Of a DNA stretch of 64,000 bases, positions 1,137 to 29,601 are shown piece after piece. The notes under the pieces were generated by a model that ran no database searches, was not told the origin of the DNA, and saw nothing but the letters and a program-made list of their open reading frames with translations. The stretch comes from Scilla litardierei. Its lineage: Eukaryota; Streptophyta; Magnoliopsida; Asparagales; Asparagaceae. Location of the stretch: positions 109,376,301 to 109,440,300 of the forward strand of contig CM061135.1 of the NCBI GenBank assembly GCA_030789695.1. The letters are read 5' to 3'. The position numbers were made by a program, and so were the translations under genes. Every line of letters begins with the position of its first letter. Positions within the stretch are counted from its first letter, which is position 1.

Positions 1137-2870
1137 ATGGCAAGAACACGCATTCCGATCACTCCCTCTAGCCCCTCTCCGATGACCGTTGATCCAATCT
1201 CTTCGGATCCCGAGCATCCAACCCCTCCGAACCGTAGAGCCAAGACCACCCATCCTTCGTCGTCTTCGCCTCCTCTCAAGAAGAAGAGGACGACGACCGC
1301 TCAACCTAGAGGTCAACCGAAACCCAAACCCAAGCCTAAGCCAAAGGCCAAAATTCTTGCTTCTCAATCTTCGTTCCATACTCCTACCGATTCCGATACG
1401 GAGTATAACCCCGAGACCGAGACTCATAGGGAACCCACTCCTCCTATTCATCCCGAGTCTAGCACCCACCCTCGTACGTCTACCCGTAAGCCTAAGGGAA
1501 AGGGTCTGATGCCGGTGGGCGGTGTCGATATTTCCTTATGTCGCGATGACCCTTTGTGTCTCGCGGCGTATAACCGTATCGAACATTGCCCGCTGCTTCT
1601 GGAGCATTTCGTCCAGTTTAGCGACTTCATAGGGTTAGCTGATCTTCTGTCGTCGTCGGGTCTTCTCGATTACCTTCGATATGACCCGAAGGCGAATCCT
1701 CACCCCTACCCTAGATTAGTGAAGCTTTTCTATGCTAATAGGATCCGGGGTCATTACGATCAGACCCACTCTGTTGAGACGACCGTTTTGGGGACTCCTA
1801 TAGTCCTCACTGCAGAAATCTTAGGAGAGATTTTGGGTATCTCTTCGTCTGGCCTTCTTCCTTCTGATATCTCGGTAGATGATATTTCTTCTCTTGATCA
1901 GACCATCCTTTCAGAGATTTTGCATCAGATTCCTCCTGCCATGATTGGCGTGCCATCTAAATCTTTCAAGCCTAATGCATGGGTCCTAAATCTGATTCTG
2001 AAGTCGTGCTTGCTTCCCAAGTACGGCTCCTCATCTTTACCATCCCAGCCATTTTTGAAGCTTATCTATGCGATCTTCATGGGGAGCTCGATTAATTGGG
2101 CTCGAATTATACTCGATAAGATTGACTCTTTCGAGTGTATTTGAAAGTCCAATAAATCGGCTCATATCCCATTTCCTTGCATGTTGACCCTCGTGTTTCG
2201 TCATTTTCGTGTCACATTGCCTCGTGACGACGAGCGTCCCCTTGGTCCTCCCCTGAATGCGACGGCCGTCAAGAAATCTCTTGCGGCGCTTCTTCACGTT
2301 CAGAGGACGACACCTTCAGCATCTGTCCCTGCCTCTGCCAGTGCCTCTGCTACTCCCGTTGCCACCCTTGATGATGTCCTACGGATACTTCGTCGTCACG
2401 AGTCCCGCTTGGCTCGTACCGAGGAGGTAGTCTGCCGTATGGCTCGTCGGATGGGTGTTGAGCTTCCTCCTTCCGTGTCTGAGGATGAGGAGTTTGATGA
2501 GATGGCTGAGGAGGACATTGAGGAGCTCTGTCGTGCTTCGACTCGTGCCCCCGAGGGCACTTCTGCTGGTACTGCTGCTGCTGGTACTTCCAGTTCTGCT
2601 CCTGGAGTTGCCACCTCTTCCGGTGTTCCAGAGCCATCTGCTGCAGCTCTTCAGCCTTCTGAGCCTGTTGCTGACCCAGTTTCCGAGCCTGCTCATGTAT
2701 CTGCTGCTGCTGCTTCTGTCGAGACTCATGCTGCTGTTGAGCCTGTTGCTGAGATCTCGACTCCTGCCCCGACGATTCCATCTGTTGAGACACCTCTTCT
2801 CCCTGCAGAGCCTGAGTCCACTCCGTCGACTGGACCCACGGACGCTGCAGATCCAGCCTCCTCCTCGTGA
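1137..2870 (+). pseudogene. E1 env-like ORF split by one in-frame stop
   Basis: One frame runs from ATG 1137 to the stop at 2868-2870, interrupted only by TGA at 2142-2144. Residues 1-125 are basic and rich in Pro, Ser and Lys (PKPKPKPKPKAK near 62-73). A folded middle part includes KLFYANRIRGHY and INWARIIL; this pattern resembles the putative plant transposon protein domain found in envelope-like products after pol in Sireviruses. After the stop comes a heptad-like stretch (DDVLRILRRHESRLARTEEVV), then a long Ala/Pro/Ser/Glu tail. The E2 ORF has the same order (KFYANL, INWGYAIL), so the two are homologous. I see no convincing signal peptide or membrane segment. The role of these proteins is unknown; envelope-like is a positional name. 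Confidence 0.75.
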
Positions 2871-3807
2871 TCGTTGTTCCGAGGACTCTCCATATACGCT
2901 TTGGATGATATATTCTAGTGAGAGTGTCTTGGGTTAGGATGGGTTGAGAGATGCTTTGATGTATTTTTTTTTGTGCTTTCTGGTTGTCGGTGTTGGATTT
3001 TGATGATGATGATGATGTATTTCTTTTTGATGATATGTAGCGCTTGATATGATGTATCTCATATATTCGATGTGATATTTTTTGGATGTACTCATGTTGT
3101 CTATATATATATATATGTTCATCATCGTTCACTTTATCTTTTATTCGTCGTGCAAATTTTAATATTCGTTGAATATATTTGAAATGTGATATCGAATCGA
3201 CGCATAAAAAGTTGGTTAAATGGATTTAAATTCTGTAATTTTATAGAATTGTTTTCCATGCACAAAATTAACCAAGAATATTGAATATTGAAGAGTATGT
3301 TTCTTTATTCAAGAAATGAATAATGATTTGGTGTTTTTGATGATTTTGATTTTTTTTTTGATAATGGAAAATTTGGCACACCTTGTTTTGATTTCCACAA
3401 TTTTTCCCTTGGTGTCAAGTTGGTCCATTGCCTTTGTCTACGACTCCCGATGTTGGATTTTACATTTCCTACTTGTTGTCGTTGTATGCCCCCCATTTTT
3501 GGGATAATGCCAAAGGGGGAGAGATAATGATAATAAATAGCGCAAATGAAAATTTAATTCAATTTCCAAGAATCTAGTTTGATATGCTAGATTCAGGGGG
3601 AGTTAAGATACATATAAGGATTTTCAAAATCCGATATTTCAAAAATCAATTCACTTTATTTATCTTACTCGTCTCCTTGATGCAATTCATTTATATTCAT
3701 TTTGGAATTAACGTGTCATCAATGCAGGGGGAGTAAGTATTTTACATTTGAATTATTATCTTTGATTATTATTTATGTTGGTTTGTCATCACCAAAAAGG
3801 GGGAGAA
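2871..3807 (+). other. E1 3' untranslated region with serial polypurine tracts
   Basis: AT-rich non-coding sequence. Polypurine tracts with the core AGGGGGAG occur at about 3512-3522, 3596-3603 and 3725-3732, and the last one, AAAAAGGGGGAGAA (3794-3807), abuts the LTR. The last tract should prime plus-strand DNA synthesis; the others are extra copies, as reported for Sireviruses. An (ATG)n-like run (3001-3017) and a TA repeat (3101-3117) are simple sequence. Confidence 0.75.
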
Positions 3808-4230
3808 TGTTGAATATTGGACTCCCCGGATTTGGTTTTGGATGATGAGCAAACATAAATACTTCATGAACTAACAATTTGTGAGCGCAGTATTGGAGAT
3901 CGTCGCCAATTTCACGAGAATATTCAAAGCGACATCTCAACACTTCCAAAAGCTCGTTTTCATGCCTAAAGCTTCGTTGAAGCTCTTGCGATGCTTTGGA
4001 AGTAATGAAGATTCAATCGAAGCTCTCAAAGACCGTTTATTAAGGTTTTATTTATAGTCTTTTAGTTTCGATTGATAGAATGTTAAGCCTTGAGTATATC
4101 TTACGTTTCTATCTTCATTACGCTCATTTCGTAGCTGTAGGATTCTTGCACAAGGTCACTCTAACTTCCTCGAAGCGTCGCGCTTCGATTCGGACTTTGT
4201 TGTGCATGTTAGTTGGTACAAGAACAAGTA

Positions 4231-4752
4231 CTGACCGACTAGATGGTGATCTAGTCGGTCGGCCACTGTTCTTGGACCGACTAGTTTCTGTCAGTTAATT
4301 CTTAGCTCTTTACTGTTTACAGTTAGTCGGTCTATGTTGACTCACCGACCGACTAGTTTGTGAACTAGTCGGTCAGTGATGCTTCTTTGACCGACTAGTT
4401 GAGACTGACTGTTCACTCTAAAATTCTCCTAAGCTACTGTTTACCGTTAGTCGGTCTAAGAACGTTTGATGACCGACTAGTTGACAATCTAGTCGGTCAA
4501 CTTTTGTTCTTGGACCGACTAAGTCAACTTGCCTTCAGACTATGTTGTTTTGCCTCTTAGTCGGTCTACGTTCATTGGATGACCGACTAGTTGTGAAACT
4601 AGTCGGTCAGACAGTGTTCTTGGACCGACTAGTTTTCTAGGTCTGAAATTCTATCTCCTCTCAGATCTGCTCTTAGTCGGTCCATGCTTTGTGACTGACC
4701 GACTAGTTGATGAACTAGTCGGTCAGTGAGTGTTCTTTGACCGACTAGATCT
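4231..4752 (+). repeat. E1 LTR palindrome cluster (GACCGACTAG/CTAGTCGGTC)
   Basis: About five units of roughly 100 bases. In each, GACCGACTAG and CTAGTCGGTC form an inverted repeat around a loop of 5-6 variable bases, followed by a lone arm. The cluster lies just upstream of the TATA box, so it sits in the U3 promoter. Palindromic repeats are known in Sirevirus LTRs; the particular motif is specific to E1 within this window. Confidence 0.85.
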
Positions 4753-14109: not shown

Positions 14110-14270
14110 TGATTAGTGTTTTTTGTATATAGTTTTCCACCCTTTTTCATGCATGTTTTTCATCGTTTCATTCTCTATTCCTCCCCATTTTGTCTCTTAT
14201 TTTGCTTATGTGGTCCCTCACATGCTTTGCAGGAGATATACGCAAATTAGGGATCATATAGCAAGATCTC
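14110..14270 (+). repeat. E3 3' LTR, first 161 bases
   Basis: Starts TGATTAGTG right after the polypurine tract. A T-rich stretch leads to CTTTGCAGGAGAT at about 14226, a good 3' splice-site shape. It is cut at 14270 by E4 and resumes at 26157. Confidence 0.75.
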
Positions 14271-14564
14271 TAATCACTTCGTATTTTACACCTTTTTTCC
14301 CGCATGATTGCATGCCATTTAGATCGCTCAAATCATGTTTTTCACGATTTATCGACAATATTGCGATACTTTTCACGATTTGTTGTTTTTGTCGTATTTC
14401 AGGAGATTTGGAGCGATTTGGAGTGATTCCGAGATGTACCCACTCCGGAGTGTCACCGAAGACTTCCCTGAGGGGTATTTTGAGATTGGAGAGGAGCGGA
14501 AGAAGAAAGAACGTCGTAGGAGCGACGAGGAGGCAAAACACTCAGAATGGGCATTTTCATTATC

Positions 14565-14975
14565 TCACTCGGCCGAGTGAAGGACTCACTCGCCGACCAG
14601 CGAGACCCCGCTCGGCCGGCCAGATCGGACATGCTCCAAGTGTGCACTCGGCCGAGCATCAGAAGCCGCCTCGGCCGAGTGACATATCCCGTCCGCCCGA
14701 GTGGCACTCAGACGACGCCCATCAAAAACTCCCGACTTACTGTTTTTCGTCAGTCTGAGCAGCAGAAGCCCCACTCGGCTGAGTGGCAATTGCCGTCCGC
14801 CCGAGTGGAGTATCCCGTCCACCCGAGTGAAGATAGCCCATCGGCCGAGTGACGACAACTCACTCGGCTGAGTGACTCCCGAAGTGACGACCCCCAAGAC
14901 CCCAGACTTACTGGAATCCGTCAGGGTTTCTCACTCGGCCGAGCGACATTTGTCACTAGGCCGAGTGAGCAGCGC
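14565..14975 (+). repeat. E4 LTR palindrome cluster (CACTCGGCCGAGTG)
   Basis: Begins with the perfect 16-bp palindrome TCACTCGGCCGAGTGA (14565-14580). About ten full or partial copies follow, some as CGCCCGAG or CGGCTGAG variants. The 3' LTR has the same cluster from about 24600 to 25010, and the motif returns at 19241-19580 in front of the env-like ORF. Confidence 0.9.
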
Positions 14976-15450
14976 TGCCTGTAGCGGAAATCACGATTTT
15001 GGAGCTAGGGCAGGGGCAGTTTGGTCACGAATTTTTGGGCAGTTTTGGGGGGTATTTAACCCCAGATTCTAACCTAGTTTAGAGAGCTTTTCTTTTGCTT
15101 TTGGCAGCCTTTTTAGATTAGACTTTTAGAGTTTTATTCTTGTGATTGGAGAGGAGAGAAAAGTGTTATTTTGTTGGATTCTTGGAAAGCTACATTGGGT
15201 TGTCTCCCTCTCTATTAAAAATCCTATTTTTATTGCTATTTTGAATATTGCCATGAATTCTATTGCTATTTCAATTGATTGTTCTTCCATTTGCAATATG
15301 AATTGTGAGTAGTCGTAACGTCTTAGGGCGTGGGGATGAACCCTACGAGCCCAATTTCTGATTTATGATGATTTGGTAGAACTATTGCTAGAATTGCTAT
15401 GAGGGTTAGTTTGGGATTGATATAACACGGATAGCTAGGTGTTCATACCG

Positions 15451-15749
15451 ATTGGGATTTGCAAGAGATTGGATCCCAATTCGATAGGAAACCCTAGAAA
15501 TCCAAATTGGGTTGGAATTGAGTTCCCGAAGTATCGGTTTGCAAGAGATTGGACCGATACTAGGATTCTCGGTTGCAATTCTATACCAATACCCGTTTGC
15601 AAGAGATTGGACGGGTAGGAACTATCCCAACCTAGGTCGTAGCCCGAGTTTGCACGAGAGTGGGCTCGGGATGCGATTGAACAATGACGTTGATCCTAAT
15701 GCTAGCTTGCCTAGGCTAGGGTTTGCAAGAGATTGGGCCCGAGCCTAGG
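15451..15749 (+). other. E4 leader: five hairpins with constant loop TTGCAAGAGATTGG
   Basis: Each 14-base loop is flanked by a different exact stem: ATTGGGAT (15451-15480, 8 bp); AGTATCGGT (15530-15561, 9 bp); TACCCGT (15590-15617, 7 bp); CCCGAGT (15643-15670, 7 pairs with one wobble, loop variant TTGCACGAGAGTGG); CCTAGGCTAGGGT (15710-15749, 12 of 13 pairs). Downstream of the TATA-like box, so probably in the RNA leader. Constant loop with unrelated stems indicates selection or a special copying process. Confidence 0.92.
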
Positions 15750-16121
15750 TTTGCTATAGACCGGCAACAGCACGAGAGCGTGAGCTAGGTTTTACATTCA
15801 GTTGTAACTAGTTCATCCGACATTCTACCCTAGCAATTATGAAACCAATGAATCACAATAACGAGATACAGTGAGTAGCGGGGATTCCCTATTCCCTAGG
15901 CGTCTTTATTTGATTTTATATCTCTTTACATCATTTGACGATTGTGACAACATCGCCGAAAGGCAATTTCCTACTTTTCTGTCCTTATAGCCAGGTTGTT
16001 CGGAGAAGGCACTGTCATACGTCCTCCCTGAGTTCGATACCCGCTCTCCGCTACACCGTGCGCTTGCGATAAAACTACACGGTCGCTCTTTAGGGTGTAC
16101 GCCCGGGCGCGATCAAGTTTT

Positions 16122-16139
16122 TGGCGCCGTTGCCGGGGA
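16122..16139 (+). other. E4 primer binding site (Asp-tRNA type)
   Basis: TGGCGCCGTTGCCGGGGA starts six bases after the LTR end. It is the Athila-type site where a tRNA 3' end primes minus-strand synthesis. Confidence 0.85.
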
Positions 16140-16256
16140 GGCGATTGTGTTTGATCCTACCACCCTAGCTATTTCTTTCTTTTATTTTATTTCTTCATTT
16201 TTTATCTAACCCTTCCATTGTGCTAATCACTTCTTTGAAACTTTGTTTTCCCGTGC

Positions 16257-19019
16257 ATGTACATGAGATCCACAGCGGACCCCATAGATATATTGTTTGA
16301 TCCTGAGATCGAGCGTACATTGTAGAGAATCAGAGCGGAGAGGAGACCCGATACGGAAGGGAGGTTTAAGAACGTTCGGGAGACGCCTGAAGAGTTAGCG
16401 GTAAGAATGGCGAGGATTATTTCCATTCGAGATAGGCTCCTACCTAAGACTTCCTCCACGACCTCGTCCATAGCCATGCTGGAGTTGGCGGCCGACAAGA
16501 ATTTTGAGTTGAAGACCGGACTTGTGGTTCTGATGCAGCAGGATCCATTTCATGGGAACGCCCATGAAAATCCCCACTACCACATCCAGCTCTTCCTATC
16601 AAAGTGCGCCACCTTCCAGTTGTCGGGCGTCACCCTAGATGCCATCAGACTGCGCCTTTTCCCCTTCACACTAAAGGATAAAGCTCTTTATTGGTTGAGG
16701 ACGCAAGCTGAAGGAGTCTTTACCACATGGGACGAGTTGGCGAGCACGTTCATTGACAAGTTCTATCCGCCCTCCAAGACGGTAAAGATTAGGGGTGCTC
16801 TCATGTCCTTCAAGCAAGGACCTCAAGAGACACTCTACGAGGCATGGGAGCGCTTCAAAGACCTACAGCATCAGTGCCCCCACCATAGTATTGAAGATTG
16901 GGAGTTAGTCCATAGCTTCTACAATGGTCTCCAACCGAGGACCAAGCAGATTATTGATGCAGCGGCAAATGGGGCCATCTTATCAAAGACTCCCGACGAA
17001 GCTACGGCCTTAATTGAGGAGATGGCCTCGAACAATCAACAATGGGACAACGAGCGAGGACACTCTTCGTCCTCCTTGAAGCCATCTAGCATCTATGAGG
17101 CCAAGGCCGTGGCGGAGCTGACCAACAAGTTCGATTCTCTCCACAAGGTGGTGGAGAGACTGGAGAAATATATCACGGAGCCCCAAGGAGCCCCTTCCAC
17201 ATCCACACCAACAAGTCAAATGTGCGATTGGCAAGACCAATCCCAAGCTATGTATTTGGGAGGAGAACAAGGAGAGGGATCTTTGGAGCAAGTTCAATAC
17301 GTCACGGGGAACCAAGGATATTGGGCCAATCCGGCCCCTAGAAACCATCCCGGTTTCTCCTATGCCAACAACGAAGGAGCATTGAACCCCCCGCAACAAC
17401 TACCTCATCAAGCTCGACAACAACAACAACAACAACATTATCCACCAAGAGGGCCACCGCAACAAAATCACCCACAAAGGCAACAAGTGGGACCCTATAG
17501 GCCGCCCGTATACAATCAAGGGTGGAGAAATCCAAACCCTCCACAAGCTCAACAATGCTCCGATTTTGAAGCTAGAGTGGAGGAGTTTATGGTCGAGCAG
17601 AAGAAGACTAATGCTTCCTTGAAGGCGGGCCAAGATTCCCTTTCAACCATTGTAGGCCAAATCTCAGAGCAACTTGCGTTGCTCAATCGAAATAGTCAAC
17701 AGTTGCCGGCTCAACCCGAGCAAAATCCACGGGGCAACGCCGGCCATATCAACACCGTGGTTGCAGTTACCACGAGAGGCGGGAAAGATACCACCCCCGT
17801 CATGATTCCAACCAAGGAGCCCGTGGTGGAGAGAGTAGAGCCAAGTGACCCGGTCATTGAAGTTGAGGGAGAGAAAGAGCCGCAAGGGGAAGAGAAGTCC
17901 AGAGCAGAGCAACTGATTGAAGAGAGACGTTTTATGCCACCGATCCCATTCCCTCAGAGGCTTGCTAGAGCAAAGATGGAGAAACGGCTAGCCAAGTTTC
18001 TCGAATATTTGAGAGGGGTAAGCCTCAATATTCCTTTCCTCGACGCTATAGTGGAGATCCCGACATACGCCAAGTTCTTAAAGGATTTGATAACGGGAAG
18101 AAAGAGGAAGGAGAAAATAATGCTCGCTGAGGAGGGGACTTGGTTCACCAAGAGAGAGAAAGATCCCGCCAAATTCAAAGACCCGGGGAGTTTCCGAATT
18201 CCTTGCACCTTAGGCGGCGTCCCTCTAGAAAAGGCGTTAGTGGACTTAGGGGCTAGTGTTAGCCTCATGCCTCTCTCTATGTTCCGAAGACTAACACCGG
18301 CACAAAATTGAAGCCTACCGACATGCGGATACAACTAGCAGATGGTCGGATCACAAGGCCGGTAGGGATCGCAGAGGACATTCCGCTACAAGTCCCCGGG
18401 GGGCATATGTTTGCCATGCGACTTTGTGATCATGGATGTCAAGGAGGAGGGAGATATGTCGCTTATACTTGGACGCCCGTTCCTCGCCACCGCCGGTGTC
18501 ATTGTCGACGTACGTGAAGGGACTCTAACATTGAACGTTGGCAACATCGAGGTGGAGCTTCATATACCCAAGGTAATGAAACACATGCCTTATCATGAGG
18601 AGCTGGACTATATGGACCTCCTTGACAAGGTCATTGAGGAGGCGATCCCCCATTCCCTCGGCGCACTATTCAAGGATGATTTTGAGGAAGGGCCGGACTT
18701 GGGCCAAGAAGAAAAGAGGGAGAATTCCTCCGACCTCTCCATGGAAATTGATGAAGGCGACGCTGATGTCGCGAGAATACGAGAGCTCTACAAGCTCTCA
18801 AGGATGAGGACTCCGAAGAAAGCCCCACCGATACGAAAATCGGTGTCACCGGTGAAGCCAAGGCCCGGAGCAAGCACTAGCTTGGGGGAGCCACCCCCCA
18901 ACACTACCCGAGACGAAGGAGCACCGAGGAAGAACGCGCCGCCACAACATCCAAATCCGAGCGTTCTTCCCGATAAATTCGACGGGTGCATCTCATATGC
19001 ACCCAATATCCCGCATTAA
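16257..19019 (+). pseudogene. E4 gag-protease pseudogene
   Basis: ATG 16257 opens a frame with one early TAG (16323-16325). After it, the frame stays open from 16326 to 18311. Residues about 90-260 form a retrotransposon gag domain (LRLFPFTLKDKALYWL, YEAWERFKDL, FYNGL). A Gln/Pro-rich linker with a CAA run (17415-17440) follows, and no zinc knuckle is seen, as is usual in Athila. The protease begins with VDLGASVSLMP (active-site Asp kept; DLGAS instead of DSGAS is normal for this group). Frameshifts near 18300 and 18405 break the protease; ILGRPFLATA is in the last frame. The ORF ends at 19019 with an acidic to basic tail of unknown role. No reverse transcriptase follows. Confidence 0.88.
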
Positions 19020-19036
19020 TTTGAAAATCCAAGGGG

Positions 19037-19083
19037 GTCGAGCTCAAGACCTTAAACGAGCGCTTGTCGGGAGGCAACCCGAC
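19037..19083 (+). promoter_or_regulatory. Post-ORF double hairpin with AGGCAA loop, E4 copy
   Basis: GTC/GAC small stem around GAGCTCAA, linker with TTAAACGAGCGCTT, then a perfect 6-bp stem GTCGGG/CCCGAC around AGGCAA. It starts 17 bases after the protease stop. Compared with E3 (CTTGGA/CCCAAG) and E5 (CATGGG/CCCATG), both arms change together. Confidence 0.8.
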
Positions 19084-19240
19084 GGAAAGGAGAAAGGGAT
19101 ATCTATCATTGGGAGGATGAACAAGGCGACTAGGAGCGCTCCAGGAATGCGCTCGATGCTTAGGAGAAGGATGAAATCAACTGGAGGAGGAAAAACAGAG
19201 ATTAGAGCCCAAACGGAGCCAAACAGCAGAAAACAGGAAT

Positions 19241-19598
19241 CACTCGGCCGAGTACACTAGCCACTCGGCCGAGCATATAAGTTCGTCCACCCGAGCGGCG
19301 CACCAACGAGGGAAGTCTGCTGTACCCAACTCTCTGTTTCTTTTCTTGTTTACAGTATAATTGCCACTCGGCCGAGTATATATCTTCACTCGGCCGAGTG
19401 AAACTGATACGCTCCTAGGGCGAGTATTGCCGAGTAGCTTGTGCCACTCGGTCGAATGGACTTTCTCCACTCGGCCGAGGGTGGCAAAGCCACTCGGCCG
19501 AGTCGTAAGCGGGGAGGAGTTTTTGAAAAAATTTCCGTTACGTTCACTCGGCCGAGTGACATGGTCACTCGACCGAGTCGTAACTTTTCCTATATAAA
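19241..19598 (+). promoter_or_regulatory. E4 internal promoter candidate: CTCGGCCGAG cluster plus TATATAAA
   Basis: About ten copies of the LTR palindrome CACTCGGCCGAGTG or close variants between 19241 and 19580, then TATATAAAGG at 19591. The env-like ATG follows 540 bases later, after a GC-rich, pyrimidine-rich leader that includes TTTAATTTGCAGGG (about 19946), a possible intron acceptor. The whole copies the LTR order of palindromes then TATA. Confidence 0.65.
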
Positions 19599-20135
19599 GG
19601 GGAGCGGGTCGGCGCGTTTTTCGAAACGACAAAAATCCCAAAATCGCCGGACTCTTCGTATCCCTCAGCCGCTTCACCCCTCCACTCGCCCGACCGCCTC
19701 ACCGACGGCTGCGCTCGGCCGACCACCGCCGGCCGAAGCCGCCGCCCCTCCGCCCGAGTCGTCGCCGGCGATCTCACCGCCGGCCGAGCTTCGGTAGCCC
19801 CTTTTCGCCCTATTTTCTCCTATTTATTGTATTTTTTGACGATCCGTGCACTAATCTAGCCCCTAATTCAAATTAACTTCATTATCTATCCATTATACCC
19901 CTAACCCCCCATACATTTTGAATATTACTCGCTGATATCTTCGTTTAATTTGCAGGGCTATATTGGGGAGCTTAGGGGAGCCTAGGGGAGCTTCCGGGGA
20001 GCGTTTTTGGCTTCGTGGAGGCGGCATCTTCGCACGCATCCACTATATTGCTCTCGCGGCGTGTTACGGTATACTCGTTCCACTTATTTTCGTACGCCGC
20101 GTTTTATCTATTCTTGGTGAGCACCCGGGGCACTG

Positions 20136-22330
20136 ATGCCGCCCCGGACACGGCCACGCACCAGGAGAGCTTCCGTCAAGCAGAAGCGGCCGGATGAGCC
20201 CGGCCCCTCCCACGAGATGGAGGACTCTCCCCCACCTACACCACCTCACCCCGCACAGCCACAGCCTGCAGACCCCGTTCACCCCGCACAGCCACAGCCT
20301 GCAGTCCCCGCTCACCCCGCACAGCCACAGCCTGCAGTCCCCGCTCACCCCGCACAGCCGCAGCCTGCAGTCCCCGTTCACCCCACACAGCCACTCCCAG
20401 CCGACCCACTGCCACCACCGGCTCCACTTGTTGGGCCGCTGGGGATTACGTTTCGAGACGACGCACACCGCGTCATTTTTGAGTGCATTTCCCAGCGCTC
20501 GATTGTACCCTCCAGGTTCGTACACCTTGCAGACCTAGGACGCCTGGGGGTACTTGAGGGGATGCTCACGTTGTATGACAACGTGGGTTGGCGAGATTTT
20601 TTCTAAGTGTCGGCGGATACCTTCGTCCGTTCGACACTTGAGGTGCTGAGTTCTATAGCCCGGATCGACGAGGGATGCTCGTTTAGGTTTATGGATCGAG
20701 AGTGCCAGGTCACTCTCGGTATGATGAGAGCATTCTTTTCATGGCCCGATATCCCAGGGGCTGACCGTGGTTACGCCCCCACTCACATCCCCCCACCTTC
20801 CTTTGATTCCCACGCTTTCTGGGCCCGGATCACGGGTTTACCAGCTGCCTTTGACCCTAGTAGGGCCAAGGCCTCAGCCATCGTCCACCCCTGCCTCCGC
20901 ATAGCTCAGCGCATTATGGCGACTACCTTTTTGGCGAGGTATAAGCCTGGGACGATGTCCACGCCGGATCTTTATATGCTCTACGCGATGACGCGCCCCA
21001 GAGCTCTAGCTAGGGGGAGTGACGAGTTGGTCCCCGCCGTCGTGATTGATATCGTGAGCTGGTTTTTGGACCGCATCATCGTATCAGTGGGTGCTCGCTC
21101 ACCGATATGTTGCGGCGGTCTGATCACCCTGCTCGCCCCGATGACCGGCGATGACATACCGACCGTGGTTACACCCCCACTTCACTATCTATAGACGTCA
21201 TGGCCTAGATGAAGATGCTTCGTCCGCACGGCCAGCGGCACTGGGTTTGGTTGCATGGTCCCTACGGTGCTGACTACATGGTCCTTCCGAGTCCAGCTCA
21301 GACACAGATAGCACCAGCACAGGCGGACTGGCTTCCGGCGATGGATCTCCTGATCCCCGTCGCCTACGTGCTTGAGGCCGAGGAGGCTGAGCAGGCTGAG
21401 CAGGCCCACGCTGCACACGTTGCACCCTTTGACCCCGTGGCCCCTCAGCCTGTGCCTGATATTTCTGCTGCTCCCGACACCTCTGTCCACACTTCTACCG
21501 GTGTCGAGAGTACACTTGCTGAGCCCACCACCACTACCACCACAGCTGGCCCTCTGTCCGTTGAGCCCCTTTGCTCCGCACTACCCGAGCGCCCACCTAC
21601 TTTTGTTGAGAGCGGAGAGCCTTCTTTTGCGGCCGTCGTGGAGACCATGGCCAGTATAATCTCCGCTGGGATTTCACCTTTTGGACCCCACACTGCCTCC
21701 CCAGCGGTTGTCACTTCTGTCTCCATCGCAGCCGTACTTTCTGAGAGTGTCGTGACGTCTGTTCCAACGTTTGTGTCACTGACCTCTCTTGCCGCCTCGT
21801 CGCCACTTTTATATTCCACTTCCGCTGCTGCTGCTTCCACCTCACACCAGCCTGCGCCCCAGCCTCGCACTGAGGCTGGGCCCCCACTTGTGAGCACAGC
21901 ACCCTTCCTCCACATGCCTGCTGAGCCCATCTACTACACCACCCGAGTCCACCAGCCCCGTCCTGCACTGCACAGACACGTGCGTCCTTCTGCACCACCT
22001 CTCCCCGACACTGTACTTCAGAGCATTCATGCTCTTAAGGGGGCGGTGAGTGCCCTCAGAGGTGACATCAGGACCATGTCTGCCACCGTCACCGCTATGG
22101 CCAGCCGCTTCGACCTACTTCTGGGCATTCACTATTGCCTCACTCAGATTCTCGATCGGCTTCCTCACGTACCGACCACACCCACACCCACCCAGCAGGT
22201 ACCCACACCCACTCCCACACCCACCCAGCCTGCTCCTACACCCCTACCCACCCATCAGACTGTTCCCCAGCCACCACCACCACCACCACCTCCGCCTCAG
22301 GACCGAGACGGCGCAGAACCACCCTCTTAG
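20136..22330 (+). pseudogene. E4 Athila-type env-like ORF, broken
   Basis: ATG 20136 starts a basic N-terminus (PPRTRPRTRRASVKQKR) and a Pro-rich tandem repeat. The frame meets TAA at 20604-20606 (after GWRDFF) and continues in frame to 21194 with RSTLEVLSSI, SAIVHPCLRIAQRI, LYMLYAM and ICCGGLITLL, all shared with E3 and E5. A frameshift and stop near 21190-21208 separate the rest (21209-22330), which begins with HWVWLHGPYG, then an acidic, Ala/Pro/Thr-rich region, a short heptad-like segment (LKGAVSALRGDIRTMSATV) and a Pro-rich tail. This is the envelope-like third ORF; function unknown. Confidence 0.78.
20247..20411 (+). repeat. Five 33-bp tandem repeats in the E4 env-like ORF
   Basis: Five in-frame copies of an 11-residue unit, consensus HPAQPQPAVPA; the last copy is diverged (HPTQPLPADPL). 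A coding minisatellite that lengthens the Pro-rich N-terminus. Confidence 0.92.
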
Positions 22331-24304
22331 GCACCCTTGATGCCATTGTTCCTTTTTTTTTGCCGTCACACTGCCCGTCTCTGCTTGGTCCTGATGATTT
22401 TTGCCCACACCCCCCTCTCCTCCACTCACTGTTTTGGGCCCACTTTTTGATCACATCTTTCTATATCATTTTTGGGAGACAGGGAGAGACTTTTTGGTGT
22501 GACACTCTTATATCTGATTCACTCTTATATCTGCATGCATCATGTCCGCATCATATTTTCATTTTGTTATTTTCATTTCTTTTTCATCATGCATGCATCC
22601 TCACATACCCCTACCATTACTCGTCTCTCGGTGTGCCACACTTTGCACATTGAGGACACTGCACTTTAGCTTGGGGGAGTGAGTTCTCATGTTTTTTCTA
22701 TTTACCACCTTTATTTTTAGTTTTTTCACGCCATTTTCCGCATTTGCACTCACTTTCATCACCTTTTTCCTTTTTTTACCATGCATCACGTTTTTCTTAT
22801 TTTCTTCGTGTGCTGCATTGTAATTAGTTTTATTTTCCCTTTTTATCTTTATTTCTTTCATCTCATGCTAGAGATGACTTTTCTGTGATGATGATGGCGT
22901 GGAGTTAGCTTTCTCTATATGCATGCTATACTTGTCATGTCTTAGCTTTTATTTCTGATATCATATGCTGTGATCTGCCTTGCATTTAGAGATAGTAACC
23001 CACACTTTTTCCGTATGAAAATGTATGAAATTCTATTATTAGCTGAGTCTGAATATTCATATGTATGCTATCGTAGAAAACACACCAAGATTCACGCATT
23101 GAATGCTTATATCTGGAGTACCGTTTTCTTTTCCTATATCACTTCTATTTGCATGACTTGTACACTTCACTTCAGGATGATTGAATGATGTTAGCTATGA
23201 TAAATCTGGATTAGTTTGCTTTTTTGTGATCGAAACCGAGTAGATTAGATTACCCTGCTGAAGTTGTCGTACACGTCTTATAGAGTGAACTGAGAGACAT
23301 ATTTATTTCTTTCTCCACATATCTTGAACATCGATTCTCTATTTTAAAATCATTGGTGAATCTCCCCTTAGCGATTCTAATATTTGGCATTTCCCCCGTT
23401 ATTAAATTCCATGCTCCAAATTTCCCAAAACCAAAAAAGATAAAGAAAAATTCTTATATATCCTTCCCCCTCTGTTGATTTGGGATCATTGAGTATGTAT
23501 GCTATTTTGAATATATAAAAAAAGAGAGAAAAGAAAGAAAAGAAAAGAAAAAGATTTGAGAAAAAGAAAAGAAAAGAGAAAAGAATCTCAATAATCGATT
23601 CCATCTCATACACTCTCTCTTTCTTCCCTCTTTTTGTTTTTATTTTTATTTTCTTTTGCATTTGGAGCTTCTAAAGAAATGGGGAATGTAAATACAGTTT
23701 TGTATATGCCACCACGCTTATAGATAAGCTTGGGGGAGAGAATCCAATGATGTGTGAGAGAGTGACTACCTGCCGGTGCATGAAAACCTAGGCTAAGTAA
23801 TATTCTATACTCGGTAAGATTATTTTAGCTTCACGAAATCCAGAAATCTACGCCTAGCATTCATTTCATGAAGTCCACGCTTTTCTATTCTTTCTATTCT
23901 ATTGCGTGATATTCTTATACTCCTCATACAAAGCATTCAATTGAAAAGTGTGTGATCTACGATATTGTATACCGCTTTAAATGATTCAGACGATGTTAAT
24001 CTTAGAATTATTCCATTTTTTCATGCTATATCAATATTCTTGTGTTTTCTTTCTCTATTTGCATTATTATACTATGATATCGAAATAAAAGTCTTTGACA
24101 TGTGTTTTACATTCGGTGCATGCTATATAAGTAAGCAAAACCCACGTCCTGAGAAAAATGATCTAGCAGCTTCCCTCTTCGCTTTCTTCTTTCTTCTTCG
24201 TTTTTCGTTTTCCGTTTTTCCATCGTTTTCATTTTCTAAATTCACCGGGTTCGCCTTTTACTTATCTTCCTCGAGGACGAGTAAGAGGTAAGCTTGTGGG
24301 ATTT
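22331..24304 (+). other. E4 3' untranslated region with three AGCTTG tracts
   Basis: Non-coding, T-rich, with an A/G-rich run at 23518-23585. AGCTTGGGGGA occurs at 22668 and 23727. The terminal tract next to the LTR is AGCTTGTGGGATTT (24291-24304), with a T breaking the G-run. No other gene is visible. Confidence 0.7.
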
Positions 24305-26151
24305 TGATCACTCCGTATTTTACACCTTTTTTCCTGCATGATTGTATGCCATTTAGATCGCTCAAATCATGTTTTTCACGATTTATCGACAATATTGCGA
24401 TACTTTTCACGATTTGTTGTTTTTGTCATATTTCAGGAGATTTGGAGCGATTTGGAGTGATTCTGAAATGTACCCACTCCGGAGGGTCACCAAAGACTTC
24501 CCTGAGGGGTATTTTGAGATTGGGGAGGAGCGGAAGAAGAAAGAATGTCGTTGGAGCGACGAGGAGGCAAAAATACTCAGAATGGGCATTTTCATTATCT
24601 CACTCGGCCGAGTGAAGGACTCACTCGGCCGACCAGCGAGACCCCGCTCGGCCGGCCAGATCGGACACGCTCCAAGTGTGCACTCGGCCGAGCATCAGAA
24701 GCCGCCTCGGCCGAGTGACGTATCCCGTCCGCTCGAGTGGCACTCAGACGACACCCATCAAAAACTCCCGACTTACTGTTTTTCGTCAGTCTGAGCAGCA
24801 GAAGCCCCACTCAGCCGAGTGACAATTGCCGTCCGCCCGAGTGGAGTATCCCGTCCGCCCGAGTGAAGATAGCCCATCGGCCGAGTGACGACAACTCACT
24901 CGGCCGAGTGACGTCCAAAGTGACGACCCCCAAGACCCCAGACTTACTGGAATCCGTCAGGGTTTCTCACTCGGCCGAGCGACATTTGTCACTCTGCCGA
25001 GTGAGCAACGCTGCCTGTAGCGGAAATCACGATTTTGGAGCTACGCAGGGGCAGTTTGGTCACGAATTTTTGGGCAGTTTTTAGGGGTATTTAACCCCAG
25101 ATTCTAACCTAGTTTAGAGAGCTTTTCTTTTGCTTTTGGCAGCCTTTTTAGATTAGACTTTTTAGAGTTTTATTCTTGTGATTGGAGAGGAGAGAAAAGT
25201 TTTATTTTGTTGGATTCTTGGAAAGCTACATTGGTTTGTCTCCCTCTCTATTAAAAATCCTATTTTTATTGCTATTTTGAATATTGCCATGAATTCTATT
25301 GCTATTTCAATTGATTGTTCTTCCATTTGCAATATGAATTGTGAGTAGTCGTAACGTCTTAGAGCGTGGGGATGAACCCAACGAGCCCAATTTCCGATTT
25401 ATGATGATTTGGTAGAACTATTGCTAGAATTGCTATGAGGGTTAGTTTGGGATTGATATAACACGGATAGCTAGGTGTTCATACCGATTGGGATTTACAA
25501 GAGATTGGATCCCAATTCGATAGGAAACCCTAGAAATCCGAATTGGGTTGGAATTGAGTTCCCGAAGTATCGGTTTGCAAGAGATTGGACCGATACTAGG
25601 ATTCTCGGTTGCAATTCTATACCAATACCCGTTTGCAAGAGATTGGACAGGTAGGAACTATCCCAACCTAGGTCGTAGCCCGAGTTTGCACGAGAGTGGG
25701 CTCGGGATGCGATTGAACGATGACGTTGATCCTAATGCTAGCTTGCCTAGGCTAGGGTTTGCAAGAGATTGGGCCCGAGCCTAGGTTTGCTATAGACCGG
25801 CAACAGCGCAAGAGCATGAGCTAGGTTTTACATTCAGTTGCAACTAGTTCATCCGACATTCTACCCTAGCAATTATGAAACCAATGAATCACAATAACGA
25901 GATACGGTGAGTAGCAGGGATTCCCTATTCCCTAGGCGTCTTTATTTGATTTTATATCTCTTTACATCATTTGACGATTGTGACAACTTCGTCGAAAGGC
26001 AATTTCCTACTTTTCTGTCCATATAGCCAGGTTGTTCGGAGAAGGCACTGTCATACGTCCTCCCTGAGTTCGATACCTGCTCGCCGCTACACCGTGCGCT
26101 TGCGGTAAAACTACACGGTCGCTCTTTAGGGTGTACGCCCGGGCGCGACCA
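24305..26151 (+). repeat. E4 3' LTR
   Basis: Starts TGATCACTCCG, ends GCGACCA, and is colinear with the 5' LTR. The hairpin array is kept at 25487-25785, with one loop change (TTACAAGAGATTGG in hairpin 1) and one stem change (hairpin 3, ACAGGT). The flanking ATCTC duplication follows. Confidence 0.93.
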
Positions 26152-27700
26152 ATCTCAGCGCAAAGAGGCGAGATGAACGAAGCCAGGAAGTCAATTGACC
26201 AAAAGAGGAGATTTTATGAACAATTGAGCTCTATGCAGCAGTGTCACCATGTCCACACTGCCATGTTAAACTGCCAAAGAAGCATCAACTACGCGACCGC
26301 GTCAATTTCCATCAAACAGCCGTGTCAGAAGACTCATAGAGGGGAGAAATGATTGAAGATCAGAGACTTTCACGGCCAGCGTGAACTAAGATGACACGAA
26401 TGCAAAATTATGGCAACAAGAGCAAAACGACATGGCCGCGTCAACAGACCATACGGCCGAGTAATCATTTTTGACACGGCTGCATATCTATTAGCACGAC
26501 CGCATCGCTGAGCCCCCCATCCCCTACTCTTCTAGGGAACGACGTGACCGTGTCGTTTCTTGATGCGGTCACATCAAACTCCATTCCTACGGCTGCTAGG
26601 GCGGATCTGGGGGTATTTTAGTCTTTTGGGCATGCGTATATAAGCGCCTCTTCATCCTTCTGTGATGAGAATACATCTTTTAACTGTTTTTCTGTTATTT
26701 ATAGGGTTTTTGGGCCATTTTGTAAGAATTCTAAACTTGGTTATTTAGTTGTTTTGATTGTTCTAATCTTTTATTAGTGTAATACTCTATCTGTGCTCAA
26801 TAGAATTTTTCTCTATTTGTTATTGCTGCCTTATTTTATCATCTACTGCCATTCTAGCTTGAATTTATGGCTTTGAACGCTTACCCATTGCTAGAAACTC
26901 CTTCTATTGTAATGGGTAGCGACTAGATTTCATCTAGGGCAATGTGATGAACCCCATTGGATGAGGGCCATGGGTTGAACCAAATAATTGATTTAGTTGA
27001 TGGGTCAGTTGAGATTAGGGGTACATTGGGACGCTTATTATCGTCGTAGATTTGACCCCCTCCCTTCGGGGTGATCGGGTTAGCCGCCGATCAAAAGTCA
27101 GGACTGATCCGGGGATCTGATCCCTACGATGATCTATACTATCGGTGTGACTGAATGCCGATTGGCACCGATTAGAGCTTGCCCAATGTAGGTCTAATCT
27201 CCAAATGCCATTGTGGGCAGGACGAAGATTGGGGATATTCATCGAGCGTAATGCGCCCAACGTACACCGATGCTTCAGAGATCACTGACATCGGTGTAGG
27301 TTGGGTTGGCCTATCATTGCATCACGGCATCAAGGGGTAGGACATGACATAAGGAAATAACCTATCATGCATCATGACAGTGGGGGATATACGAATGCCC
27401 TTAGGTCACACGACCTCTCCCGAGTCCCAATGAAACCGGTAACTTGTTAATTATTAGTTTGACCTTAACCCTAGTCAATGGCAGGGATTCCCCACGCCTT
27501 AGAGCTTTTACCCCTTAATTACACTCTTTCTACCATTCATCAACCAATCACTATGACTATCGTGTAGCTTTCACTCGAAGATCCATAGAACCAATACTTA
27601 ATTGATCACCTCCTCGTGTGCGACCCGTAAGCGACTACACACGACCCGTCCGTTGTAGTGTTATTAGCATCGTTCGGTCCCCTCACGCGGATCACGATCA
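26152..27700 (+). repeat. E3 3' LTR, remainder (with E4 target duplication)
   Basis: 26152-26156 is the duplicated ATCTC; LTR sequence of E3 resumes at 26157 and ends CACGATCA at 27700. It has GACGCGGCCGCGTC-like palindromes (about 26270-26580), TATATAAG at 26637 and a hairpin-rich tail: TACCCATT/AATGGGTA (26882-26918), ATCGGTG/CACCGAT, GATTAGA/TCTAATC and ACACCGATG/CATCGGTGT (about 27140-27297). Loops of 16-21 bases are not clearly constant here. The next bases (CTTGG) begin the copia copy E7. Confidence 0.78.
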
Positions 27701-29565
27701 CTTGGAAAACTAAGAAACATGAGAATTTCCTAGAAAATGGCAAGTGCCACTAGTACTCTTCCAATCGGGGTTGCATCCGGTAAAATCTGTATTACTAAAT
27801 GAGATTAACTTATATGTGCTAGACTTAGGGTAAAGTAACCCATAATCTGGTGAATGATTGAGATAACGAAAAATTCGTTTAACTGCAATCAAATGTGACT
27901 CCTTAGGTCTAGCTTGATATCTAGCATAATGACATATGGAGAACATAATATCGGGCCTACTAGCAGTTAAGTAAAGTAAGCTACCAATCATGCCTCGATA
28001 TAGATGAATGGCTATATCTTTCCCGTTCTCATCCTTGTGTAGATGGGTTGTCGTACTCATGGGAGTCTGCTTGCTTGAAGACGATTCCATCCCGAATCGC
28101 TTGATAAGCTCCCCATTGTACTTTGTTTGGTGTATGAAAGTCACATCCTTCATTTGCCGAATTTGTAGTCCAAGGAAGTAGTTGAGCTCATCCATACGGC
28201 TCATTTCGAATTCATCCTTCACAGACTTAGAAAATTCTTGGCAAAGATTAAATTTAGTAGAACCAAATATTATATCGTCTACATAAACTTGAATTAAAAG
28301 GATGTCATTTTCATAATCTTTAATGAAGAGAGTTGAATCAACTTCACCCATTTTAAAACCAAAATCCAAAAGAAAGGTTTTGAGTCGATCATACCAATCT
28401 CTAGGAGCCTGTCTCAACCCATATAGCACTTTCTTGAGTTTGAAAACATGGTTTGGAAATTTTTCATGTATGAAACCGGGTGGTTGAGAAACATAAACTT
28501 CTTCATTAACGATACCATTTAAAAATACACTTTTAACATCTATTTGAAATAATTTTAATTTTTTATGAGATGCAAACGATAAAAGCAACCTAATAGCTTC
28601 TAATCTAGCTATGGGGGCAAATGATTCTTCGAAATCAATACCTTCCTCTTGCCGATAGCCTTGAGCTACTAACCTTGCTTTATTCCTTGTGATGACCTCA
28701 TTCTCATTGGTCTTGTTCTTAAAAATCCATTTGGTCTTGATGACTTGGTGACCATTGGGAAGAGGAACGAGCTCCTAATCTTCATTTCTTTCAAATTGCA
28801 TGAGCTCCTCTTCTATTGCAACTATCCAAGAGCTATCTTCACATACTTCTTGAATTTTCTTAGGCTCAATGGTAGAGACAAATGCACAATGAGAGAATTC
28901 ATCAATCCTTGACCTTGTTCGGACACCCACACCAATGTCTTTTATTATTTAGTCATGGGGGTGATTATGAATGGTCGGATAAGCTTTGGGAATACCTGGA
29001 TCACTTGGAACATCCTCAACATTTTCATTAGTATTGTTAGTCTCAATAATAGAATCATTAATTTTAACATTACTAATGGAATCACATAAAACATCTACAC
29101 TATCATCGACTACATAAGGAATAACAAAATCTTCATAAAATGGAACATGTAGTGATTTCTCGATCATTGAAGAGGTTTTGTTGTATATCCGATAGGCTTT
29201 GCTACGTGTGAAATATCCAACAAAGATTTCTTCATCGGATCTTGGCTCAAATTTATCTAAGTTACCATAGGTGTTCTTTATAAAACATTTTGAACCAAAA
29301 ACACGAAAATATTTAACTTGCGGCTTTTTATCATAAAATAATTCAAAACAAGTTTTGTTCATTCGAGGCCTCACTAGGATCCTATTTAGCACATAACAGC
29401 CGTGTGCACCGCTTCAGCCCAAAATTATAGTCCAAGATGACTATCAAGAAGCATGGTGCGAGCACACTTAATTAGGGTCTTATTCTTTCTCTCAACAACA
29501 CCATTTTGAGGTGGTGTGCGAGGAAAAGAAAAATTGTGAGTAATCCCATTGTCATCACCAAACGG
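27701..29565 (-). pseudogene. E7 copia (Sirevirus-type) integrase end, RT and RNase H start
   Basis: Minus strand, read from 29565 down. First the integrase core end (TPPQNGVVERKN), then FGSKCFI and FVGYFTRSKAYRIYN typical of copia integrase. Reverse transcriptase follows: the clearest stretch is 28588-27710 with [24 protein letters not shown] and the catalytic [10 protein letters not shown], then [16 protein letters not shown] and [11 protein letters not shown] of RNase H. Stops occur near 28775 and 28949, and in the last codons. The remainder of RNase H is missing because E3 is inserted at 27700. Similarity to Sirevirus-type enzymes is by motif. It is the oldest host element in this part. 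Confidence 0.85.
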
Positions 29566-29583
29566 ACGGGTGGTTAAGCTTTA

Positions 29584-29601
29584 TGGCGCCGTTGCCAGGG
29601 A
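29584..29601 (+). other. E5 primer binding site (Asp-tRNA type)
   Basis: TGGCGCCGTTGCCAGGGA, one base different from the E4 site. It marks the start of the internal region although no LTR precedes it. Confidence 0.75.

What the first reader, a model, noticed from the sequence alone, without database searches (positions are those of the whole stretch)
15451..15749. E4 leader: five hairpins, one constant 14-base loop, five different stems
Directly visible: loop TTGCAAGAGATTGG (one variant TTGCACGAGAGTGG) with stems ATTGGGAT, AGTATCGGT, TACCCGT, CCCGAGT and CCTAGGCTAGGGT, each matched by its exact complement after the loop. A tandem repeat would keep stems equal; here only the loop is kept, while both arms of each stem differ together. 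The array lies after the LTR TATA box, so it is in the RNA leader, and the 3' LTR carries it too (25487-25785). I know of no described element of this form. Possible roles: packaging signal, dimer signal or protein-bound RNA tag.
Basis: seen in the sequence. Interest (0 to 1): 0.9.

Follow-up and report, generated by a model that had tools for sequence, protein, structure and literature searches.

The report
Five-hairpin RNA tag in plant retrotransposon
The leader RNA of a very abundant plant retrotransposon carries five hairpins whose tips are nearly identical while their stems differ but stay paired, which looks like a repeated docking site that a protein could use to pick out the element's RNA, and the same array is found on elements that carry only the gag gene and on elements that carry only the pol gene.

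Summary
E4 is an Athila-group LTR element (14271-26151). Both LTRs carry five hairpins, downstream of a TATA box.

The "loop" is itself structured: a U.G pair, a 2-nt bulge, and a 3-bp inner stem capped by GAGA (a GNRA tetraloop). The loop variant is a compensatory A-U to C-G change.

The host genome (3.68 Gb, unnamed) has 192,994 apex matches (at most one mismatch). Of 50 elements sampled by primer-binding site, 33 have all five apices at near-fixed spacing; the 16 in other families have none.

Over 54 arrays, outer stem arms diverge as fast as spacers (74-76% versus 73% identity between clades), yet 93% of pair cells pair; GAGA is 98% identical. For core pairs, changes keeping pairing outnumber breaks 24:5 on internal tree branches but not on terminal ones (42:53): selection on RNA structure during replication.

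The array also sits on two complementary element types: gag-type without reverse transcriptase (E4 and four others, where checked) and gag-less pol-type (three).

Best explanation: a multivalent RNA tag for selective packaging, shared by complementary elements. Structure and selection are shown; packaging is inferred. No Rfam match; ten paper searches listed nothing like it.

The parts
15451..15480 (+). Hairpin 1: outer stem ATTGGGAT/ATCCCAAT, apex 15459-15472
   Evidence: arrays were collected by requiring this apex, so its presence in 54 of 54 is by selection
15530..15561 (+). Hairpin 2: outer stem AGTATCGGT/ACCGATACT, apex 15539-15552
   Evidence: outer pair 4 is C-G in 29 and T-A in 24 of 53 distinct arrays with no intermediate
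15590..15617 (+). Hairpin 3: outer stem TACCCGT/ACGGGTA, apex 15597-15610
   Evidence: pair 4 C-G 30, T-A 22, T.G 1; pair 5 C-G 28, T-A 23, unpaired 2
15643..15670 (+). Hairpin 4: outer stem CCCGAGT/GCTCGGG, apex variant TTGCACGAGAGTGG 15650-15663 (inner stem CAC/GUG)
   Evidence: innermost pair C-G 39, A-T 11, T.G 2, unpaired 1
15710..15749 (+). Hairpin 5: outer stem CCTAGGCTAGGGT/GCCCGAGCCTAGG (one mismatch), apex 15723-15736
   Evidence: innermost pair A-T 39, C-G 13, T.G 1
15770..15781 (+). Possible degenerate sixth GAGA hairpin (GCGC-GAGA-GCGT in most of the copies printed; GCAC-GAGA-GCGT here)
   Evidence: printed for 22 of 54 arrays, nearly constant; no covariation test made
25487..25785 (+). 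The same five hairpins in the 3' LTR
15053..15059 (+). TATA box TATTTAA, 406 nt upstream of the hairpin 1 apex
   Evidence: TATA-like box in 52 of 54 copies at -361 to -425
14271..16115 (+). E4 5' LTR (begins TA, ends CA); target-site duplicate ATCTC at 14266-14270 and 26152-26156
   Evidence: one search prints the flanks; the second copy is read one base earlier than the script's slice
24305..26151 (+). E4 3' LTR, 97% identical to the 5' LTR
16118..16139 (+). Primer-binding site TTTTTGGCGCCGTTGCCGGGGA
16407..18311 (+). Gag ORF (634 aa, Retrotrans_gag; protease start at its end, by eye); no CCHC zinc knuckle
18411..19019 (+). ORF joining a protease-like part (by eye; no Pfam hit) to the C-terminal tail of the pol ORF (18606-18968, 63% to pol-type residues 712-833 of L225): reverse transcriptase, RNase H and integrase are missing between them
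20607..21194 (+). ORF with ATHILA ORF-1 family match
   Evidence: PF03078, E 2.6e-06

Best explanation
The array is a cis-acting RNA element: five copies of one recognition unit set on five independent stems in the 5' leader of an Athila-group retrotransposon. The unit is an outer stem, a U.G pair, a 5' UG bulge and a 3-bp inner stem capped by a GAGA tetraloop. The stems mainly present the unit, so their sequence is free as long as they pair and differ from each other, which may also stop hairpins from mispairing with their neighbours. A protein, most likely the element's own Gag or a particle partner, would bind the repeated units cooperatively and so select this RNA for packaging and reverse transcription. 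Because the same array sits on gag-type elements without RT and on pol-type elements without gag, it would be the shared address label that brings both RNAs into one particle. Shown here: the predicted structure, its conservation, compensatory evolution on replicating lineages, and its presence on both element types. Inferred: protein binding, packaging, and that the two types complement each other.
For: Compensatory change: over 53 distinct arrays and 61 pairs, 93.2% of 3233 cells pair, against 12-49% with partners slid by 1-3; 0 of 500 shuffles reach the paired percentage or the 166 double-change cells. The 33 PBS-sampled arrays alone give 92.7% against 12-49%. Tree: 12 double changes that keep pairing, against 0, 0, 0, 1, 2 and 0 in six slid controls. 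Internal branches, 50 core pairs: Watson-Crick to G.U 10, to A.C 1 (p = 0.012), a plus-strand RNA signature; terminal branches 33:26 (p = 0.43); keep:break 24:5 internal, 42:53 terminal, Fisher p = 0.00026. All 61 pairs: 33:17 and 55:73, p = 0.0074. Apex constant, stems free: identity between clades is GAGA 0.98, bulge/U.G 0.976, inner stem 0.91, outer arms 0.74-0.76, spacer 0.725. Most arrays were found through the apex, which inflates this; among the 33 PBS-sampled ones it is 0.978, 0.969, 0.889 and, for the innermost 7 arm bases, 0.78 and 0.69. In the PBS sample 33 of 34 members of the family have all five apices. 35 of 54 copies are predicted to form all five hairpins, 18 four, 1 three. 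Both element types: of 20 array-bearing loci with 1.5 kb beyond the PBS, 9 encode this Gag; three others form one group without any match to it, and two of these show RT by Pfam. E4 has no RT, RNase H or integrase match but keeps the pol tail at 18606-18968; 4 of 4 other gag-type elements have no RT in the 2.3 kb checked. The pol ORF of L187 continues into RNase H and integrase. One pol-type LTR leader (L152) is closer to a gag-type one (0.916) than to the other pol-types (0.828, 0.792). The array-bearing Gag lacks the CCHC knuckle (0 of 10 aligned, one poorly), so RNA choice may rest on something else.
Against: No binding, packaging or transcript data exist here. Two control measures are weaker: 15 of 500 shuffles reach the 16 pairs with a double change and 19 of 500 reach the number of pair types. 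The keep:break contrast is weaker over all 61 pairs (33:17) than over the core (24:5). The predicted apex is not unique: an 8-nt loop closed by wobbles competes, and for hairpin 4 it is favoured (mean probability 0.60 against 0.31); only covariation favours the bulged form. Array-bearing loci also include five with another ORF (group II), with no RT, RNase H or integrase match in the next 2 kb of 2 of 2 checked, and three unclassified. Of the three pol-type loci, L186 has no Pfam hit and is placed by DNA similarity only; the nearest leader to L180 and to L186 is a group II one (0.909, 0.927), and these two are 0.892 alike. Element type and LTR tree are not independent: 5 changes observed, 7.3 expected, P = 0.02. 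The CCHC motif was found in only 5 of 10 other-family loci, two of them at another position, and L191, without the array, also aligns without it.
Confidence: 0.5

Rival explanations
1. Translation control: the hairpins shape ribosome passage (shunting, delayed scanning or cap-independent entry) along the roughly 1 kb leader before gag or pol.
For: The array lies between a TATA-like box and the coding region in 52 of 54 copies. Long structured leaders with shunting are described for plant pararetroviruses (PMC5902531; search listing and start of abstract only).
Against: Shunting needs stable structure, not a sequence-constant apex; GAGA is 98% conserved while stems drift. The same array precedes quite different ORFs. 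Upstream ORFs were not analysed.
Confidence: 0.16
2. A TAR-like or export-like site: a host or element protein binds the repeated bulge-plus-tetraloop to raise transcription, nuclear export or RNA stability.
For: A 5' bulge under a small apical stem in the leader resembles TAR in layout (recalled). Repetition suits cooperative binding.
Against: It starts about 370 nt after the start site expected from the TATA box rather than at it. No candidate protein was identified. It would also explain sharing among element types, so it is not excluded.
Confidence: 0.15
3. Dimer linkage through the palindrome TTGCAA in the apices.
For: TTGCAA is self-complementary and present in four of the five 5' LTR apices.
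Against: Half of it is in the inner stem, and the C-G inner variants (39 of 53 in hairpin 4, 13 of 53 in hairpin 5) destroy the palindrome but keep the inner pair.
Confidence: 0.06
4. DNA-level palindromes: transcription-factor sites or CpG-type repeats, like the Sirevirus repeated motifs.
For: E4's U3 does have such motifs (CTCGGCCGAG at 14568, 14647, 14670, 14934). Sirevirus motifs are clustered palindromes near the promoter (PMC2829016, passages).
Against: Sirevirus motifs lie upstream of the TATA box and are symmetrical repeats of one motif; here the arms vary from hairpin to hairpin and the array is downstream. On internal branches G.U changes outnumber A.C 10:1, which DNA symmetry would not give.
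Confidence: 0.04
5. Hairpins as small-RNA sources or decoys in host silencing.
For: Structured LTR regions in maize attract small RNAs (PMC10760457, passages).
Against: Stems of 7-13 bp are short for plant Dicer substrates (recalled), and silencing would not select for pairing or for a constant apex. The same passages say that Ty3 elements of maize lack an obvious peak of such structure.
Confidence: 0.04
6. Chance or duplicated repeats drifting.
For: Five similar apices could come from ancient duplication.
Against: Arms drift but pairing is kept; a motif-blind scanner finds the array in 33 of 34 family members, in 0 of 16 other-family leaders and in 0 of 34 shuffled family leaders.
Confidence: 0.01

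Closest known systems
Retroviral packaging signals (psi) with several leader hairpins
   Same: Multiple hairpins in the 5' leader, sequence-specific small loops, located before gag and near the primer-binding site (recalled; reviews seen only as listings)
   Different: Psi hairpins (recalled) are few and differ in loop and role; here one apex is repeated five times on unrelated stems, in a plant Athila element
Satellite tobacco necrosis virus 1 putative packaging signals PS1-PS5
   Same: Five 5' stem-loops sharing a short loop motif in variable stems (PMC6475782, passages)
   Different: The motif there is only AxxA, at the 5' end of a small RNA virus and overlapping its coat-protein gene; that paper says its data weigh against AxxA as a true signal in vivo. 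Here the apex of 14 nt is nearly constant and the stems co-vary
Sirevirus LTR repeated motifs
   Same: Arrays of short palindromes in plant LTRs (PMC2829016, passages)
   Different: One symmetrical motif repeated, with a CGG-CCG core, upstream of the TATA box, Ty1/copia; in this array the arms vary, the centre is constant, and it lies downstream of the TATA box, Ty3/gypsy
BARE1/BARE2 of barley
   Same: A gag-less element whose RNA is packaged in another element's particles, with conserved dimerisation and packaging signals (PMC3735527, passages)
   Different: BARE1 makes its own Gag and has gag and pol in one ORF; no repeated-apex array was mentioned in the passages seen; here none of the gag-type or pol-type elements examined was seen to be complete
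Non-autonomous gag-only plant elements (TR-GAG type, recalled)
   Same: gag kept, pol lost
   Different: Here a pol-type group without gag shares the same LTR leader and array

Membership tests
Athila-group Ty3/gypsy LTR retrotransposon | LTRs with target-site duplication, PBS, Retrotrans_gag and an ATHILA ORF | tested here: met
Athila-group Ty3/gypsy LTR retrotransposon | Complete gag-pro-RT-RH-INT | tested here: not met
   No RT, RNase H or integrase match in E4, only the pol tail; no RT in the 2.3 kb checked of four other gag-type elements; E4 is a non-autonomous member
Conserved RNA secondary structure | Compensatory pair changes beyond controls | tested here: met
   two of four shuffle measures are reached by 15 and 19 of 500 shuffles
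Known Rfam family | Covariance-model match at gathering score | tested here: not met
   Only three matches far below gathering score in 15000-16200, E 1.6-4.6
Retroviral-type packaging signal | Location in genomic RNA leader | tested here: inconclusive
   TATA-like box upstream in 52 of 54 copies makes it likely; the start site was not mapped
Retroviral-type packaging signal | Specific binding by Gag or nucleocapsid | not testable with these tools
   Needs a binding assay; note that the Gag lacks a CCHC knuckle
Retroviral-type packaging signal | Retained by non-autonomous elements mobilised in trans | tested here: inconclusive
   Array present on gag-less and RT-less elements; mobilisation in trans is inferred
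Sirevirus repeated motif | Palindromic motif with a CGG-CCG core upstream of the TATA box | tested here: not met
   The array has variable arms and lies downstream
Kissing-loop dimer signal | Conserved palindromic loop | tested here: not met
   Palindrome broken in C-G inner variants

The most novel reading that the evidence does not exclude
A two-part LTR retrotransposon. Gag-pro and pol are carried by separate, complementary elements that both multiplied widely, with no complete element seen among those examined. They are held together by a five-fold repeated hairpin address label in the leader that selects both RNAs for one particle, replacing the lost zinc knuckle as the source of specificity.
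Probability: 0.33. Interest if true: 0.93.

Novelty: new variant of a known kind. Interest (0 to 1): 0.8.

Why it matters
How plant LTR retrotransposons choose their RNA is, to my knowledge, little explored. This gives a concrete candidate signal with 54 natural variants that already separate sequence from structure. If packaging is confirmed, it would show how gag-less and pol-less elements can be mobilised together and how an LTR family can multiply on a very large scale through incomplete elements. It is also a clean natural case of a constant apex on freely drifting, compensated stems, useful as a test set for RNA-structure prediction.

Tried and rejected
Rfam: nothing above threshold. Viral contigs: the PBS pattern gave 0, the loop gave 120 listed hits that look like chance, the two-loop pattern gave 0, and Gag gave 0 relatives. 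Prokaryote contigs: the PBS pattern found two records, by content plant contamination, L121 and L122. L122 has five CCACTTGG hairpins, but in near-identical units, so it fails the different-stem test. A first same-loop scanner was too strict: it detected the array in 4 of 7 family members tested, and in L121 found one pair that I take as chance; it was replaced by the scanner. Other PBS families: no constant-apex array in 16 of 16. Kissing-loop, DNA-palindrome and small-RNA ideas are weighed under rivals. Ten arbitrary 10-kb stretches held no array. Literature: ten searches listed no description of this array or of a two-part LTR retrotransposon; only 10-20 titles per search were seen, and subscription papers and preprints are not held. 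Whole-genome counts are of motifs, not of arrays.

Full report
WHAT IS THERE. E4 is a Ty3/gypsy element of the Athila group. Its LTRs are 14271-16115 and 24305-26151, 97% identical, with the target-site duplicate ATCTC on both sides. It has the primer-binding site TTTTTGGCGCCGTTGCCGGGGA, a 634-aa Gag ORF with Retrotrans_gag, and an ORF matching the ATHILA ORF-1 family. Reverse-transcriptase, RNase H and integrase queries from a pol-type element find no match inside E4 at E below 0.1 except the C-terminal pol tail at 18606-18968 (63% identity), right after a protease-like part: E4 looks like a gag-pro element with the RT-RH-INT block missing. Stems 1-3 are perfect; stem 4 ends in a T.G pair; stem 5 has one A.G mismatch and a T.G pair.

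THE LOOP IS STRUCTURED. The minimum-energy fold of the 361-nt region (z = -5.2) closes U.G above the outer stem, leaves a two-base UG bulge, pairs CAA with UUG, and leaves GAGA as a tetraloop of GNRA form, in four of the five hairpins. In hairpin 4 the fold prefers another register, but its odd loop (CAC...GUG) reads as a compensatory change of the same inner stem. Thermodynamics alone does not settle this: an 8-nt loop closed by wobble pairs competes throughout and is favoured in hairpin 4. Covariation favours the inner stem: its innermost pair is C-G 39, A-T 11, T.G 2, other 1 in hairpin 4, and A-T 39, C-G 13, T.G 1 in hairpin 5.

HOW COMMON. In the window's own genome (3.68 Gb, unnamed) the 14-mer with at most one mismatch has 97,113 plus 95,881 places, against 423 for the reversed control pattern. 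The primer-binding site has 20,152 exact places. I sampled 50 of the 100 listed places, all on contig 1: 33 have five motifs (up to 3 mismatches each) at spacings near 80, 58, 53 and 73 (last spacing 60 in L205). One further member of the same family, L214, lacks them, and 16 in five other families have no array. A motif-blind scanner for "same apex, different stems" is positive in 33 of 34 family members, 0 of 34 shuffled family leaders, 0 of 16 other-family leaders, and 0 of 3 other leaders (the neighbouring LTR, L121, L122).

COMPENSATORY EVOLUTION. 54 distinct arrays were collected by motif and spacing (hairpin 1 apex and at least four of five apices within 4 mismatches); no row was dropped after that, and one duplicate over the hairpins leaves 53 rows for pair counts. 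Over 61 pairs, 93.2% of 3233 cells pair, against 12-49% in six slid controls. Sixteen pairs show a change on both sides. 0 of 500 shuffles reach the percentage or the number of double-change cells; 15 and 19 of 500 reach the number of such pairs and of pair types. The 33 PBS-sampled arrays alone give 92.7% against 12-49%. On a tree built from leader sequence outside the hairpins there are 12 double changes that keep pairing, against 0, 0, 0, 1, 2 and 0 for slid partners. For the 50 core pairs (outer 1-7 and inner), internal branches show Watson-Crick to G.U 10 and to A.C 1; terminal branches show 33 and 26. Pair-keeping against breaking is 24:5 on internal and 42:53 on terminal branches (Fisher p = 0.00026). 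For all 61 pairs it is 33:17 and 55:73 (p = 0.0074), weaker but in the same direction. Terminal branches are mostly changes after insertion, so this is the expected contrast between selection during replication and neutral decay afterwards. The G.U against A.C asymmetry places selection on the plus-strand RNA, not on DNA symmetry. Between the two main clades, identity is 0.98 in GAGA, 0.976 in bulge and U.G, 0.91 in the inner stem, 0.74-0.76 in the outer arms and 0.725 in spacers. Because most arrays were found through the apex, apex values are inflated; in the PBS-sampled subset they are 0.978, 0.969 and 0.889, and 0.78/0.69 for the innermost seven arm bases. The outer arms are thus about as free in sequence as the spacers but are held to pairing. 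Caveats: the tree is inferred, LTRs may recombine, and p-values are approximate.

IS IT IN THE RNA? A TATA-like box lies 361-425 nt upstream of hairpin 1 in 52 of 54 copies (none found in L138 and L213); downstream TATA-like strings are sporadic. The start site was not mapped. Whatever it is, the 3' LTR puts the array in full-length RNA.

TWO KINDS OF ELEMENT SHARE IT. Twenty array-bearing loci come with 1.5 kb beyond the primer-binding site. Nine encode the E4-type Gag. Three (L180, L186, L187) form another group with no match to it; L187 and L180 have RVT_1 within that stretch, L186 has no Pfam hit in its open stretch and belongs by DNA similarity. Five (group II) have another ORF, and three are unclassified. 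E4 lacks RT throughout; four other gag-type elements from both clades have no RT match in the 2.3 kb after the protease region and are collinear with E4 there; five gag-type loci were not followed further. The pol ORF of L187 goes on into RNase H and integrase (L225). Its tail matches E4 and two other gag-type elements just after the protease region, as expected if the two types are complementary deletions of one ancestor. The first look for the pol-type RT gave 72,665 candidates; the 150 scored are 99-100% identical, none with stops in the match, with open frames of 469 to 1388 aa. For Gag there were 59,327 candidates; the 150 scored are 94-100% identical with open frames up to 952 aa, none long enough for a gag-pol fusion. 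A complete element elsewhere, or pol in another frame, is not excluded. Two of two group II elements showed no RT, RNase H or integrase match in the next 2 kb. LTR leaders of the types are partly intermingled: pol-type L152 is closest to a gag-type (0.916) and farther from the other pol-types (0.828, 0.792), but L180 and L186 are closest to a group II leader (0.909, 0.927) and 0.892 to each other, and types are not random on the tree (5 changes, 7.3 expected, P = 0.02).

GAG. The array-bearing Gag lacks a CCHC knuckle in 10 of 10 copies whose alignment spans it (E4 and nine others; L194 aligns poorly there). CCHC motifs are readable in 5 of 10 other-family loci, two of them (L181, L182) at another position; L191, without the array, also aligns without one. 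The link between knuckle loss and array is therefore only suggestive.

MECHANISM. A constant, structured apex repeated on unrelated, freely drifting stems is what one expects of a site read by a trans-acting protein, with the stems mainly presenting it and the repetition giving avidity. Presence on elements that lack gag and on elements that lack pol favours a step acting on the RNA in trans, packaging above all, over control of one particular ORF. This is inference; no binding or packaging datum exists.

NOVELTY. Sirevirus motifs (PMC2829016, passages), STNV-1 signals (PMC6475782, passages) and BARE2 (PMC3735527, passages) are the nearest described things I found; each shares one aspect only. 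A survey of maize hairpins (PMC10760457, passages) says Ty3 elements there generally lack an obvious structural peak. Ten paper searches listed no match. I file it as a new variant of a known kind (cis-acting leader RNA signal). The two-part retrotransposon reading would be further out.

Noticed in passing
14568, 14647, 14670, 14934; 19243-19547; 24603-24970: Palindrome CTCGGCCGAG repeats upstream of the TATA box in both LTRs (4 and 5 copies) and as a 7-copy cluster before the ATHILA ORF, much like Sirevirus repeated motifs (which also have extra copies at the env side) but in a Ty3/gypsy element.
   Followed up: partly
26157-33317: A second Athila-type LTR directly follows E4; a stretch read by eye as a Ty1/copia fragment lies between it and a PBS-like site at 29580 (two mismatches), and RT, RNase H and integrase matches to the pol-type (30467-33317, 67-71%) follow with no E4-type gag match. 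Its leader has one long hairpin with a 2-nt bulge at 27253-27310.
   Followed up: partly
L171:1678-3021, L187:1533-3020, L195:2-1324: An unnamed domain of about 60 aa is shared by the N-terminus of the pol-type ORF, group II ORFs and L195, and occurs in other PBS families L178 and L179; no Pfam match covers it in the ORFs scanned.
   Followed up: partly
L121, L122: Plant-like retroelement contigs inside two bacterial genome assemblies (Streptomyces clavifer, Blastococcus endophyticus), probably contamination; L122 carries five CCACTTGG hairpins in its LTR in alternating unit types.
   Followed up: partly
625-4748, 44543-44849, 53220-53489, 63887-64000: Other parts of the window carry their own clustered palindromes (GACCGACTAG, AACCGATCGGGT, GGCC-rich), so family-specific palindrome clusters may be general here.
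   Followed up: no
G000, 150 scored places: The 150 scored pol-type RT copies are 99-100% identical and without stops in the match, pointing to a recent burst.
   Followed up: no
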